A stretch of 35,918 nucleotides of DNA from Solirubrobacterales bacterium (lineage in GTDB: Bacteria; Actinomycetota; Thermoleophilia; Solirubrobacterales; 70-9). Location: positions 1 through 35,918 of the forward strand of contig JAJNAZ010000023.1 of the NCBI GenBank assembly GCA_021155855.1, read 5' to 3'. The notes below the pieces were generated by a model. It searched no databases and was not told the origin of the DNA. It worked only from the letters and a program-made list of their open reading frames with translations. Positions 12,183 through 22,752 of the stretch are shown here, in pieces. Both the position numbers and the translations under genes were made by a program. Every line of letters starts with the position of its first letter. The stretch's first letter is position 1.

Positions 12183-13676
12183 ATGGCCACCACGACCGCC
12201 GCGACCGCACCGATCACCGAGCGCTCGGCGACGGCACTTGCCGGTGCGATCCGTGCCGGAGAGCTGCGCTCGCGCCAGGTCGTCGACGAGCACATTGAGC
12301 TGATCGAGCGGGTGAACCCGCGCCTGAACGCGCTCGTCGCCGACCGCTTCGAGGCGGCGCGCGCGGAGGCGGATGCCGCCGACGCCCGCGTCGCGAAGAG
12401 CGCGGGCCAGGGCGAGCTGCCGCCGCTGCTCGGCGTCCCGTGCACGATCAAGGAGTCGTTCGCGGTCGCCGGACTGCCGAACTCGGCCGGGCTGCACCAC
12501 CGCAGGGACGTCTGCGCACCGGCGCACGCGGTCGCGGTCGAGCGCCTGGTCGAGGCCGGCGCGATCCCGCTCGGGGTCACCAACGTCTCCGAGCTGACCC
12601 TGTGGATCGAGTCCACCAACCGCGTCTACGGGCGCACGAACAACGCCTACGACCACCGGCGCACCGCGGGCGGCTCGTCGGGCGGCGAGGGGGCCGCGAT
12701 CGGCTCCGGCTTCGCCCCGTTCGGGATCGGCACCGACTTCGGCGGTTCGATCCGGATCCCGGCGTTCTTCAACGGCGTCTTCGGCCACAAGCCGACCGGC
12801 CGCCTGGTCCCCCACACCGGCCACTTCCCGGCGCCGAAGAACGAGATCGGCGCGCGGCTGCTCGGGATCGGCCCGCTCGCCCGCCGGGCCGAGGACCTGT
12901 GGCCGGTGGTGCGGGCGCTCGCCGGACCCGACGGCGTCGACACCACGGTCGAGGAGTTCGAGCTCGGCGATCCTGGCGAGGTCTCGATCGAGGGCCTGCA
13001 GGTGACGATCACCGACGACGCCACCGTGCTCCCCGTGTCGGCCGAGCTTCGCAACGCGCGCCTGCACGCAGCGAGCGCGCTCGCCGAGCGCGGCGCCCTG
13101 GTGCGGCGGGTCTCGCTGCGCGGCCTGCGCCGGGCGGTCCAGCCCTATCTCGAGGCGGTGCGCCAGTCCGGCAGCCTCACCGAGATGTTCGAGGAGGAGG
13201 GCTATGACTTTCCGCCTCTGCGGCGGCTGCTCGTCGACGGGATTCGCCGACGATCCGTCCACACCCCGGCCCTGGTGATCTCGCATCTGGCCGAGAAGGC
13301 CTCCGGGCGCCTACCCGAGCGGCTCGAGCGGCGCGCCGCTGCCGCTACCAGGACGCTGGAGGCCGAGGTCGAGGAGGCGATCGGCGACGGGGTCCTTTTG
13401 CACCCGCCGTTTGCTCGCGTGGCCCCGCGCCACGGGGGCACCGTCGGACGCCCGTGGATCCTCGGCCCGATGGCCGCCTTCAACCTGCTCGGCCTACCCG
13501 CGACCGAGATCCCCCTCGGCCTCAACCAGCGGGGCCTGCCGCTCGGCGTCCAGGCCGCCGCCGCCCGCGGCCACGACCACCTGTCGGTCGCGGTCGCAGT
13601 CGAGCTCGAGCGCGCCTTCGGCGGCTGGGTGCCGCCGCGCCCAAGCGCCGGCCCCGGGCGCGCTATTCGACCGTGA
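12183..13676 (+). CDS. Amidase-signature family hydrolase
   Basis: 497 residues from ATG 12183. The amidase-signature triad is complete: K90 in CTIKESF, cis-Ser S165 in GGSSGGEG and nucleophile S189 in DFGGSIRIP. Spacing between the two serines is 24, as in fatty-acid amide hydrolase (FAAH), and GGSSGGEGAAIGSG resembles FAAH more than GatA. A nearby GatB/GatC is absent, so this is a stand-alone amide hydrolase acting in the cytoplasm, with unknown substrate. Its last 14 bp overlap the end of the convergent cupredoxin gene. Confidence 0.87.
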   Translation: MATTTAATAPITERSATALAGAIRAGELRSRQVVDEHIELIERVNPRLNALVADRFEAARAEADAADARVAKSAGQGELPPLLGVPCTIKESFAVAGLPNSAGLHHRRDVCAPAHAVAVERLVEAGAIPLGVTNVSELTLWIESTNRVYGRTNNAYDHRRTAGGSSGGEGAAIGSGFAPFGIGTDFGGSIRIPAFFNGVFGHKPTGRLVPHTGHFPAPKNEIGARLLGIGPLARRAEDLWPVVRALAGPDGVDTTVEEFELGDPGEVSIEGLQVTITDDATVLPVSAELRNARLHAASALAERGALVRRVSLRGLRRAVQPYLEAVRQSGSLTEMFEEEGYDFPPLRRLLVDGIRRRSVHTPALVISHLAEKASGRLPERLERRAAAATRTLEAEVEEAIGDGVLLHPPFARVAPRHGGTVGRPWILGPMAAFNLLGLPATEIPLGLNQRGLPLGVQAAAARGHDHLSVAVAVELERAFGGWVPPRPSAGPGRAIRP

Positions 13677-14106
13677 CCGTGCCCTCCATCCCCTCCTCGC
13701 GATGCCCGGGGATCGCGCAGTACATCTCGTACTCGCCCGGTTCGAGCTCGACCGTGAGGTCGGTCTTCTGGCCGCCCTCGACCGTGTCGGAGACCTCCTC
13801 GACCCCGTTGCCCTCGACCTCGAGGTTGTGCGGGGCCGAGCCGTCGTTGCTGACCGCGAACGTCACCTCGCCCGCCTGCGCGGTCACGTCGGCGGGCTTG
13901 ATCGCGAACTCGACCTCGGAGATGTCGATCGTCTCGCCACCACCCCCGCCCGCGACCTCGGTGGTGGTGTCCTCGGTGGTGGTCTCCTCGGCAGTCGTCT
14001 CGCTTGCCGCCGGCGTGGTCTCGTCGTCGTCATCGTCCCCGCAGGCGGCGACTGCAAGCGGGATCGCGAGCAGGATGGCGACGAGGGCGAAGGATTTGCG
14101 GATCAA
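13663..14106 (-). CDS. Cupredoxin-like lipoprotein (plastocyanin/azurin family)
   Basis: 147 residues from TTG 14106, chosen because GAGGAGG lies 6 nt upstream and the reading continues as a lipoprotein signal peptide (lipobox AVAAC, C22). After a Thr/Glu-rich linker (about 28-58) comes a blue-copper domain with all four type 1 copper ligands: H93, C130, H135 and M140 (APHN, MYCAIPGH, EGM). It should sit on the outer face of the membrane and carry electrons or bind copper. The gene is divergent from an ECF sigma gene, and the two share a promoter motif (CAATCC-N16-CGTA). An upstream ATG at 14190 would place the signal peptide 28 residues in and is rejected. Confidence 0.88.
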   Translation of the reverse strand: MIRKSFALVAILLAIPLAVAACGDDDDDETTPAASETTAEETTTEDTTTEVAGGGGGETIDISEVEFAIKPADVTAQAGEVTFAVSNDGSAPHNLEVEGNGVEEVSDTVEGGQKTDLTVELEPGEYEMYCAIPGHREEGMEGTVTVE

Positions 14107-14152: not shown

Positions 14153-14178
14153 TACGGGCGAGCCCGGCCGCGGGATTG
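14153..14178 (-). promoter_or_regulatory. ECF-type promoter of the cupredoxin gene
   Basis: On the minus strand CAATCC (14178-14173) and CGTA (14156-14153) are separated by exactly 16 nt. The same pair and spacing occur on the other strand before the sigma gene. The predicted start of transcription leaves a leader of about 40 nt containing GAGGAGG. Confidence 0.65.
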
Positions 14179-14187
14179 CGCGCCCGA

Positions 14188-14213
14188 CAATCCCGGCGCA
14201 CGCGGCGCTCGTA
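14188..14213 (+). promoter_or_regulatory. ECF-type promoter of the sigma/anti-sigma operon
   Basis: CAATCC (14188-14193), 16 nt, CGTA (14210-14213), then 7 nt to the ATG, so the transcript would be leaderless. CGT is a common -10 core for ECF sigma factors. Autoregulation by the encoded sigma factor is the simplest reading. Confidence 0.65.
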
Positions 14214-14220
14214 AGACCGG

Positions 14221-14802
14221 ATGTGGTCGCTTTCAGATGAGGCGCTCGTAGCCGGCCTCGCCGCCGGCGACCAGGGCGCGGCAACCGCGTTCGTGCGTCG
14301 CTTCCAGGCGCGGGTCTTCGGGCTCGCGGTGACCATGGTCGGCGATCGCGCGGTCGCCGAGGAGATCGCGCAGGAGGCGTTCACGCGGGCGTGGCGCCAC
14401 GCGGGCGCCTACGACGCGCGCCGCGGCCGGGTGACCACGTGGCTGCTCTCGATCACCCGCAACCTGGCGATCGACCATCTGCGGGCGAAGCGAACCGAGC
14501 CGCTCGACCCGGACGCGATCGGCGACGCGGAGCGCGCGATGTGGGCGACCGCGGCACGCTCGGCGGCGACGCCGGGGGACGGTGAGACCGATGAGCTGCG
14601 CGCGATGCTCGGCGACTTGCCCGGCGAGCAGCGCCGCGCCTTGCTGCTCGCCGCCCTGTTCGGCTACACGGCGCGCGAGATCGGCGCGATCGAGCAGATC
14701 CCCCTGGGGACGGCGAAGACGCGAATCCGCGCCGCGATGCGGAAGCTCGGCCGCGACACACCCGGCCGCGACGACGAACGACGCCGGGGAGGGATGCGAT
14801 GA
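14221..14802 (+). CDS. ECF-subfamily RNA polymerase sigma factor
   Basis: 193 residues. Sigma region 2 (about 10-90) has FVRRFQARVFGLAVTMVGDR, then EEIAQEAFTRAWRHA and TTWLLSITRNLAIDHLRAKR. Region 4 (about 115-180) has LPGEQRRALLLAALFGYTAREIG and the HTH PLGTAKTRIRAAMRKL. Region 3 is missing, as in ECF factors. It overlaps the next gene, its probable anti-sigma factor, by 4 bp (ATGA). It probably switches on its own operon and the divergent cupredoxin, which share a promoter motif. The stimulus is unknown; the neighbours suggest copper or redox stress. Confidence 0.93.
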   Translation: MWSLSDEALVAGLAAGDQGAATAFVRRFQARVFGLAVTMVGDRAVAEEIAQEAFTRAWRHAGAYDARRGRVTTWLLSITRNLAIDHLRAKRTEPLDPDAIGDAERAMWATAARSAATPGDGETDELRAMLGDLPGEQRRALLLAALFGYTAREIGAIEQIPLGTAKTRIRAAMRKLGRDTPGRDDERRRGGMR

Positions 14803-15479
14803 GCACCGACTGCGAGCGGGTGCGCGAGATCGCCGCGGAGCTGGCGCTCGGGATCGCCGACGGCGAGGACCGCGCCCGAGCGCTGGAGCACCTCGCGGAG
14901 TGCACCGGCTGCAGGGCCGCGGTCGAGCGGCTCTCGTCGGTCGCCGACGAGCTGCTTTTGCTCGCACCGGCCCAGGAGCCGCCGCCGGGGTTCGAGGGCC
15001 GGGTCGCCGAGTCGCTGCGACCGGCGGCGCGGCGCGCCTGGCGTGGCCGCCGCCTGGCACTGCCGGTGGTGGCCGCGCTCAGCGCTGCGGCGCTAGCGGC
15101 GGGCGCCGTCTGGTTCGCGCTCGGCGACGATCGCGAGCTCGCCGATTCCTACCGCCAGGAGCTCGCGGTCGCCAACGGCGAGTACTTCGACGCCTCCTCC
15201 CTGGAGCTTCCCGGCGGCGAGAAGGTCGGCTACATCTACGGCTATCAGGGGCGGGCGTCGTGGGTGCTGGCCCTGATCTACGACGGCGTTGACGACGGCA
15301 CCTACCGGCTCGAGCTGGTCGCCGAGGGCGGCGAGAAGCTGCCCCTGACCGAGCTCGAGATTGCCCGCGAGGAGGGCAGCGCCGGCGCCGCGACCCCGAT
15401 CGACTACGAGCGGCTGACCGAGGTGCGGCTGCTCGACGAGCGCGGGCGCGAGGTGGCCGACTCGGAGCTGCGGGAGTAG
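14799..15479 (+). CDS. Anti-sigma factor, single-pass membrane protein (zinc-finger ZAS type)
   Basis: 226 residues. The N-terminal cytoplasmic part has the ZAS zinc motif HLAECTGC (H31, C35, C38), which in this family clamps sigma regions 2 and 4. One membrane helix follows (about 86-107), then a 119-residue external domain (RskA-like, many acidic residues). Its ATG overlaps the sigma gene stop by 4 bp, so the two are made in equal amounts. The outside domain probably senses a signal or undergoes regulated proteolysis to release the sigma factor. No other function is evident. Confidence 0.88.
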   Translation: MSTDCERVREIAAELALGIADGEDRARALEHLAECTGCRAAVERLSSVADELLLLAPAQEPPPGFEGRVAESLRPAARRAWRGRRLALPVVAALSAAALAAGAVWFALGDDRELADSYRQELAVANGEYFDASSLELPGGEKVGYIYGYQGRASWVLALIYDGVDDGTYRLELVAEGGEKLPLTELEIAREEGSAGAATPIDYERLTEVRLLDERGREVADSELRE

Positions 15480-15493
15480 GCGAGCTTCTCGCT

Positions 15494-15510
15494 ATACCCC
15501 TAAGGGGTAT
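15494..15510. promoter_or_regulatory. CsoR-like operator upstream of the DUF4396 gene
   Basis: ATACCCCTAAGGGGTAT is a perfect inverted repeat with 8-bp arms around one central base. It has the ATACCCC/GGGGTAT form known for CsoR copper repressors (and related RcnR/FrmR-type metal or formaldehyde sensors). It lies immediately before the -10 box TATCGT (15515-15520), so bound repressor would block the promoter. No csoR gene is in the window. Confidence 0.7.
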
Positions 15511-15527: not shown

Positions 15528-16109
15528 ATGGAGGCCCAGGCCGATGCTCACGCGCACGCCCATGAGATGCCGACCCAGGGCAGCGCGCTCACCGCGGTCG
15601 CGGTCAGCGCCACCCTGCACTGCCTCACCGGCTGTGCGATCGGCGAGGTCCTGGGAATGGTCCTCGGCACCGCCTGGGGATTCTCCGATTGGGGCACGGT
15701 CGCGCTCGCGGTCGCGCTTGCCTTCTTCTTCGGCTACCTGCTGACCAGCATCCCTCTGCTGCGGGCCGGGCTTGCGATCGCCGCCGTGATCCCGATCGCG
15801 CTCGCCACCGACACGCTCAGCATCGCGGTGATGGAGGTGGTCGACAACGCAATCATCCTCGCGATTCCGGGAGCGATGGAGGCCGGGCTCGGCGACGTCC
15901 TCTTCTGGGGCACGCTCTCGTTCGCGCTCGCGATCGCGTTCGTCGTCACCGTGCCGGTCAACCGCTGGCTGATCACCCGCGGCAGGGGCCACGCCGTCCT
16001 GCACCGGACCGGCATCCACGGCGGCCCGCCGATCTGGCTGATCGGGGCGCTGACGGCCGTAGGGGCGGCCTTCGGGCTCGTGGTCCTGCTCGCCGAGGCC
16101 TTCGGGTAG
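15528..16109 (+). CDS. DUF4396 multi-pass membrane protein
   Basis: 193 residues with about five membrane segments. The family signature ATLHCLTGCAIGEVLGMVLG (about 28-47) is visible, with His and two Cys in the first membrane helix and a histidine-rich N-terminus (DAHAHAHEM) that could bind metal. DUF4396 has no proven function that I know of. The CsoR-like operator and the neighbouring cupredoxin and ECF genes suggest a metal, probably copper, transport or handling role; this is inference. It has its own leaderless promoter, so it need not be co-transcribed with the anti-sigma gene 48 bp upstream. Confidence 0.78.
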   Translation: MEAQADAHAHAHEMPTQGSALTAVAVSATLHCLTGCAIGEVLGMVLGTAWGFSDWGTVALAVALAFFFGYLLTSIPLLRAGLAIAAVIPIALATDTLSIAVMEVVDNAIILAIPGAMEAGLGDVLFWGTLSFALAIAFVVTVPVNRWLITRGRGHAVLHRTGIHGGPPIWLIGALTAVGAAFGLVVLLAEAFG

Positions 16110-21972: not shown

Positions 21973-22752
21973 TTGGTCGCTGCATCGATGCCGAACCCCG
22001 CGCCACCCACGGTGCTTCGCACCGTCGGCCACCCGCTGCGCTGGGGGCTTTTGAGCGAGCTCGCGCGCAGCGACCGCAGGGTGCGGGAGCTGTGCGACTT
22101 GCTCGGCCAACCCCAGAGCCTCGTCTCCTACCATCTCGGCCGCCTGCGAGCGGACGGGCTCCTGTCGACCCGTCGAAGCGCCGCCGACGGCCGCGACAGC
22201 TACTACACGCTCGATCTCGCCCGCTGCGGCGAGCTGCTCGCGGTGGCAGCCGGTGCGCTGCACCCCGGGCTGCGCGCGGCCGCGCCGCCGGGCCCTGCGT
22301 GGGAGAAATCGCTGCCGCGCGTTCGGATCCTGTTCCTCTGCACCGGGAACAGCGCCAGATCACAGATCGCTGAGGCCTTGGTCGAACATCTGACCGGCGG
22401 CGCGATCGAGGTTGCGAGTGCCGGCAGCCACCCGAAGCCGCTGCACCCGAACGCCGTACGCGTGATGCGCGACCACGGCATCGATCTGCGGGGGCGGCGC
22501 TCCAAGCACCTCGACGAGTTCGCCGGGCAACCGTTCGACCGGGTGATCAGCCTCTGCGACCGCGTGCGCGAGGTGTGCCCCGAGTTTCCCGGGCGTCCCG
22601 ACCTGATCCATTGGAGCATCCCCGACCCGGCCCGAGAGGGCGACACCGACGAAGAGAGTTACCCGGCGTTCGAGCGAACCGCCGCCGAGCTCGCCGCGCG
22701 AATCCCTTTCCTGCTCGCACTGATCGAGCACACCGAGTCAACCAGGAGGTGA
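21973..22752 (+). CDS. ArsR-ArsC fusion: HTH repressor joined to a LMW-phosphatase-type arsenate reductase
   Basis: 259 residues from TTG 21973 (leaderless rule), or 254 from ATG 21988; residue numbers here count from the ATG. Residues about 5-90 are an ArsR-type winged helix (RELCDLLGQPQSLVSYHLGRL). A short linker leads to an ArsC domain (112-250) with the P-loop CTGNSAR (C118-R124), the redox pair C190 and C197 in LCDRVREVCP (spacing as in C82/C89 of Staphylococcus ArsC), and D213 in IPDPA. The N-terminal domain has only one Cys where E. coli ArsR has ELCVCDL, so As(III) sensing is uncertain. It probably reduces arsenate and represses its own promoter. It is 7 bp from the VOC gene. Confidence 0.9.
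   Translation: MVAASMPNPAPPTVLRTVGHPLRWGLLSELARSDRRVRELCDLLGQPQSLVSYHLGRLRADGLLSTRRSAADGRDSYYTLDLARCGELLAVAAGALHPGLRAAAPPGPAWEKSLPRVRILFLCTGNSARSQIAEALVEHLTGGAIEVASAGSHPKPLHPNAVRVMRDHGIDLRGRRSKHLDEFAGQPFDRVISLCDRVREVCPEFPGRPDLIHWSIPDPAREGDTDEESYPAFERTAAELAARIPFLLALIEHTESTRR

What the first reader, a model, noticed from the sequence alone, without database searches (positions are those of the whole stretch)
14153..14213. Divergent ECF promoters with identical motif and spacing: CAATCC-N16-CGTA on both strands
Seen: the gap between the cupredoxin and sigma genes has CAATCC, exactly 16 nt, and CGTA on each strand (14178-14153 minus; 14188-14213 plus). The spacers differ. The plus-strand copy is 7 nt before the ATG. 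Known: ECF factors recognise such two-part promoters and commonly regulate themselves. Inference: the encoded sigma factor activates its own operon and the cupredoxin, so the regulon can be searched with this pattern.
Basis: partly seen in the sequence, partly recalled or inferred. Interest (0 to 1): 0.75.

Follow-up and report, generated by a model that had tools for sequence, protein, structure and literature searches.

The report
Conserved divergent ECF sigma autoregulatory promoters
Two identical back-to-back promoters sit between a sigma-factor gene and a secreted copper-protein gene, and comparison across actinobacteria indicates that this sigma factor switches on itself and a small set of secreted lipoproteins; this is a textbook kind of switch in an apparently uncharacterised family.

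Summary
It is not chance. The strict form precedes the sigma gene in 8 of 43 orthologues from scattered Actinomycetota (0.01 expected in shuffles); a slightly relaxed form in 14 of 43, against 0 of 99 paralogous or distant ECF genes. A second copy facing the divergent gene recurs in 13 gaps; in one non-congeneric genome that gene is again a cupredoxin and both sites keep N16. The distance between the two -35 elements varies (1-28 nt) while the inner spacing stays 16-17, arguing for two promoters, not one palindromic operator. PF03640 secreted lipoprotein genes carry the motif in 7 of 16 cases in genomes with this sigma and in none of 26 scannable genes from same-family genomes without it. Pattern-only regulon prediction is partly reliable: the thioredoxin-cupredoxin site is not conserved in the congener. 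An ordinary kind of system with a newly delineated promoter and partial regulon; the inducing signal is unknown.

The parts
14188..14213 (+). Sigma-operon promoter: -35 CAATCC (14188-14193), N16, -10 CGTA (14210-14213)
   Evidence: sequence; conserved in orthologues; absent before 99 other ECF genes
14153..14178 (-). Cupredoxin promoter: -35 CAATCC (14178-14173), N16, -10 CGTA (14156-14153)
   Evidence: sequence; counterparts in congener (CGATCC-N17-CGTA) and in L227 (CAATCT-N16-CGTA before a cupredoxin)
14221..14802 (+). ECF sigma factor, 193 aa, regions 2 and 4
   Evidence: Pfam Sigma70_r2 5e-19, Sigma70_r4_2 2e-11; NCBIfam sigma70-ECF
14799..15479 (+). Membrane anti-sigma factor, 226 aa, N-terminal HLAECTGC zinc-finger motif, probable TM helix near residues 85-107 (by eye); its start overlaps the sigma stop codon, so probably co-transcribed
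13663..14106 (-). Cupredoxin lipoprotein (TTG start), type-1 copper ligand set H93, C130, H135, M140, lipobox cysteine C22
   Evidence: Pfam Copper-bind 8e-11, Cupredoxin_1 1e-10; residues
14112..14117 (-). Shine-Dalgarno AGGAGG of the cupredoxin leader; the sigma side has room for none
   Evidence: sequence

Best explanation
The two sites are back-to-back promoters of the ECF sigma factor encoded at 14221-14802. Shown: two identical -35/-10 pairs with equal spacing, conserved in orthologous gaps and tied to this sigma subfamily. Inferred mechanism: the membrane anti-sigma factor (ZAS motif HLAECTGC, TM helix, external domain) holds the sigma at rest. An unknown envelope signal, plausibly redox or copper related because of its targets, releases it. 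Sigma region 4 then reads CAATCC and region 2 reads CGTA. Transcription to the right gives a leaderless or nearly leaderless sigma/anti-sigma mRNA (positive feedback plus the brake). Transcription to the left gives the cupredoxin mRNA, with a leader of about 40 nt and an AGGAGG ribosome site. The same sigma also transcribes PF03640 secreted lipoproteins elsewhere in the genome.
For: Strict motif before the sigma gene in 8/43 orthologues vs 0.01 in shuffles; relaxed NAATCC-N16/17-[CG]GTA 14/43 vs 0.06; minus-strand copies 6/43 vs 0.05. None of 99 paralogous or distant ECF genes has it. Congener: identical + site at the same distance with a changed spacer. Divergent pairs in 13 gaps, including L227, where sigma and cupredoxin are divergent with CAATCT-N16-GGTA / CAATCT-N16-CGTA. 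CGTA-to-start distance 6-9 nt in most orthologues. PF03640 genes: motif in 7/16 with the sigma vs 0/26 scannable genes without, Fisher p = 4e-4. The orthologous PF03640 genes of both congeners have it 9 nt before ATG.
Against: No transcription data. About half the orthologues show no close form; the -35 drifts to TGAACC in one branch and some gaps show none. The congener's cupredoxin copy is weaker (CGATCC, N17). One PF03640 gene in each congener (L264, L267) lacks the motif. The own-genome thioredoxin-cupredoxin site is absent in the congener's orthologue. Orthologues are related, so they are not fully independent. For leaderless initiation the start would have to lie closer to the -10 than in the numbering used for Mtb SigL promoters (PMC6372665), so the exact start is uncertain.
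Confidence: 0.87

Rival explanations
1. The motif is real for the sigma operon, but the cupredoxin-facing copy is fortuitous or decaying, so the cupredoxin is not a dependable target.
For: In the congener the copy is CGATCC-N17-CGTA; the cupredoxin is the divergent neighbour only in this genus and in L227 among the gaps studied.
Against: Perfect second copy here; L227 has CAATCT-N16-CGTA facing its cupredoxin; divergent copies recur in 13 gaps.
Confidence: 0.08
2. GGATTG-N9-CAATCC is a palindromic operator of a separate regulator, and the CGTA matches are incidental.
For: The two copies do form an inverted repeat with a 9-nt centre.
Against: The distance between the two halves varies from 1 to 28 nt in orthologous gaps while the -35 to -10 spacing stays 16-17; single copies stand before PF03640 genes.
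Confidence: 0.03
3. Another ECF sigma of the same genome (17 matches to the sigma query were found) reads these sites.
For: One search lists many paralogues; cross-recognition between ECFs is known in general.
Against: The motif is not found before 99 other ECF genes, and PF03640 genes lack it in family members that have other ECFs but not this one.
Confidence: 0.05
4. Chance coincidence of two short motifs.
For: Ten specified bases per site is not much in 2.8 Mb.
Against: About 3e-5 expected per strand in this gap, plus conservation.
Confidence: 0.005

Closest known systems
Mycobacterium tuberculosis SigK/RskA (ECF18/ECF19)
   Same: Closest named models: NCBIfam SigK is the top hit and SigK 4nqw the top solved structure. 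Sigma next to a membrane anti-sigma; secreted protein targets; SigK sites reported conserved across actinobacteria (PMC7509140).
   Different: Scores 110.9 bits against a SigK cut-off of 226. The protein has no cysteine, while Cys133/Cys183 are conserved in 94% of ECF18 and 56% of ECF19 (PMC7509140). No fasciclin targets seen; -35 is CAATCC here (SigK CCATCC is recalled, not tested), although two orthologues do show CCATCC-N16-CGTA.
Mycobacterium tuberculosis SigL promoters
   Same: C-G preferred just upstream of a -10 that begins with T (PMC6372665); the TGAACC branch of this family resembles the SigL -35 as recalled.
   Different: CGTA rather than CGTG at the position where SigL is most specific; the sigma profile matches SigL more weakly than SigK.
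Mycobacterium tuberculosis SigC (copper acquisition)
   Same: An actinobacterial ECF sigma linked to copper (PMC7924339).
   Different: SigC is monocistronic with no known anti-sigma, and a title cited there reports it is not autoregulatory; different targets.

Membership tests
ECF (group IV) sigma factor | Only regions 2 and 4, about 190 aa | tested here: met
   193 aa; Sigma70_r2 24-91 and r4 124-176, nothing between
ECF (group IV) sigma factor | Two-part promoter with about 16-nt spacing upstream of its own operon | tested here: met
   function itself not tested
ECF (group IV) sigma factor | Directs transcription from that promoter | not testable with these tools
   needs in vitro transcription or a deletion
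Class I zinc-binding (ZAS) anti-sigma factor | HxxxCxxC motif in an N-terminal domain | tested here: met
   HLAECTGC at residue 31; zf-HC2 20.7 bits, just under the cut-off of 22.2
Class I zinc-binding (ZAS) anti-sigma factor | Single TM helix and external domain | tested here: inconclusive
   hydrophobic stretch near 85-107 by eye; no TM predictor available
SigK (ECF18/ECF19) | Passes the curated SigK model | tested here: not met
   110.9 bits vs 226
SigK (ECF18/ECF19) | Cys133 and Cys183 pair | tested here: not met
   no cysteine in the 193 aa; frequency from PMC7509140; not universal in ECF19
A numbered group of the 2021 ECF classification | Match to group HMM | not testable with these tools
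   the paper and its HMMs are not held

The most novel reading that the evidence does not exclude
An undescribed, patchily distributed actinobacterial ECF subfamily with its own promoter code (CAATC[CT]-N16-CGTA) and a conserved leaderless, divergent architecture. It controls a secreted copper/redox lipoprotein set (cupredoxins and PF03640 proteins of unknown function), giving PF03640 a regulatory assignment.
Probability: 0.4. Interest if true: 0.5.

Novelty: new member of a known kind. Interest (0 to 1): 0.42.

Why it matters
It gives a predicted promoter code and partial regulon for an ECF sigma family spread thinly over the Actinomycetota. It also ties the unknown secreted repeat PF03640 to cupredoxins and an envelope stress switch, so a function for PF03640 becomes testable. 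The same gap offers a compact, natural two-way ECF promoter.

Tried and rejected
Dyad-operator reading: rejected because the gap between the -35 elements varies 1-28 nt. Thioredoxin-cupredoxin operon (L008, CAATCC-N16-CGTA) as a core regulon member: the 86%-identical thioredoxin of the congener lacks the motif and no cupredoxin was seen behind it, so it is only a possible lineage-specific target. L004 (CAATCC-N16-CGTA 10 nt before ATG): the congener matches only its C-terminal Ig-like domain, so conservation could not be tested. L133 CHRD gene of the congener: no clear one-to-one orthologue in the own genome. N15 and N17 hits: L002 and L003 are not promoter-like (L003 inside a gene) and L007/L009 are unsupported; L001 (N17) is supported by its orthologue. 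One-mismatch sites: mostly inside genes, near background. Literature searches for an ECF linked to PF03640/COG4315 or to cupredoxins gave nothing relevant in the held library, which covers open-licence papers only.

Full report
OBSERVATION. The gap between the cupredoxin start (TTG, 14106) and the sigma ATG (14221) is 114 nt. The pattern with N15-17 occurs nowhere else in the window, and shuffles give 0.04 on average. In the whole 2.83-Mb assembly it occurs 9 times against 2 for the reversed control.

GENES. The plus-strand gene is a 193-aa ECF sigma (regions 2 and 4). It overlaps a 226-aa anti-sigma gene with a HLAECTGC zinc-finger motif and a probable TM helix. The minus-strand gene is a lipoprotein cupredoxin with a full type-1 copper ligand set (H93, C130, H135, M140). 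Behind the anti-sigma gene lies a DUF4396 membrane protein.

ORTHOLOGUES. Only one congener (G049 = L040, Solirubrobacterales Dino_bin17) and one other order member (G127) carry the sigma among 232 genomes of the order. In named genomes it also occurs in an Acidimicrobiaceae MAG, Actinomadura, Nonomuraea and other Actinomycetes MAGs at 53-59% identity. A profile (A1) found it in 17 of 396 genomes sampled over the phylum (the own genome included) and in 28 of 300 around Actinomadura. The distribution is patchy.

CONSERVATION. The congener keeps CAATCC-N16-CGTA 7 nt before ATG with a changed spacer, and CGATCC-N17-CGTA on the other strand. Acidimicrobiaceae L041 has GAATCC-N16-CGTA (+) and CAATCC-N16-CGTA (-). 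Over 43 orthologues the strict form stands within 90 nt of the sigma gene in 8 (0.01 expected), NAATCC-N16/17-[CG]GTA in 14 (0.06), and a broader form including TGAACC in 24 (1.7); minus-strand copies of the second form occur in 6 (0.05). None of 99 paralogous or distant ECF genes has the second form on either strand. Near-duplicate orthologues are included in the 43, so the counts are not independent events.

ARCHITECTURE. Divergent pairs were found in 13 orthologous gaps besides the window's (three of them near-identical relatives). The distance between the two -35 elements ranges from 1 to 28 nt, while the spacing within each site stays 16-17. This separates two promoters from a fixed palindrome. 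In L227, from another family of the phylum, sigma and a cupredoxin (Cupredoxin_1, 5e-15) are divergent with CAATCT-N16-GGTA and CAATCT-N16-CGTA. Other divergent partners are PF03640 proteins (L041, L178, L223) and an Ig-like protein with a cytochrome b561 (L042, L244, L245, L248). The -10 to start distance is 6-9 nt in most orthologues, so the sigma mRNA is probably leaderless or nearly so. The cupredoxin side has a leader with AGGAGG. The transcription starts are inferred.

REGULON. The own genome has four exact N16 sites, all upstream of genes: sigma, cupredoxin, a secreted Ig-like protein (L004) and a thioredoxin-cupredoxin pair (L008). With N17 the pattern stands 9 nt before a PF03640 lipoprotein gene (L001), and the orthologous gene of the congener (L126, same neighbours) has CAATCC-N16-CGTA 9 nt before its ATG. 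PF03640 genes of sigma-bearing genomes have such sites (NAATC[CT]-N16/17-[CG]GTA) in 7 of 16 cases. The same scan of 28 PF03640 genes from same-family genomes without the sigma gave none; two of those have almost no upstream sequence, hence 7/16 against 0/26, Fisher p = 4e-4. The thioredoxin site is not conserved in the congener.

MECHANISM. Shown: motif, spacing, conservation, linkage to this sigma subfamily. Inferred from established ECF biology: anti-sigma sequestration, release by an envelope signal, autoactivation, and simultaneous activation of a secreted redox/copper protein. The signal is not known; the external domain of the anti-sigma here has no Cys, His or Met (by eye), which argues against direct copper binding there.

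KNOWN KINDS. Autoregulated ECF/anti-sigma operons with divergent targets are a known kind. SigK is the closest named relative, but the curated SigK score and the SigK cysteine pair are not met. The numbered ECF group could not be assigned because the classification is not held. No held paper found links such a sigma to PF03640 or cupredoxins.

VERDICT.

Noticed in passing
window 15495-15509 (TACCCCTAAGGGGTA), before DUF4396 at 15528-16109: A near-perfect palindrome resembling CsoR-type copper-repressor operators (resemblance recalled, not tested) stands between the anti-sigma stop and the DUF4396 membrane protein with a His-rich N-terminus, hinting at separate, perhaps metal-responsive, control.
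   Followed up: partly
L042, L243, L244, L248 upstream of sigma: Several orthologues have no ATG/GTG/TTG in frame at the expected start; the conserved W-x-L-S-D-E N-terminus is preceded by CTG or CAG, suggesting unusual or downstream starts.
   Followed up: no
G040, G041, G043, G037, G033, G032: PF03640 genes also lie 1.2-1.6 kb from other ECF sigma genes in same-family genomes, so PF03640 may be a common ECF-linked protein class.
   Followed up: no
window 22012-22752 (+): Fusion of an ArsR/MarR-type DNA-binding domain with a low-molecular-weight phosphatase (arsenate-reductase-like) domain.
   Followed up: no
L318, L319 and L008, upstream of thioredoxin: A conserved CTATACTTTTTGAAG-like element precedes the thioredoxin gene in G049 and G127 and in altered form in the own genome, probably its housekeeping promoter.
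   Followed up: no
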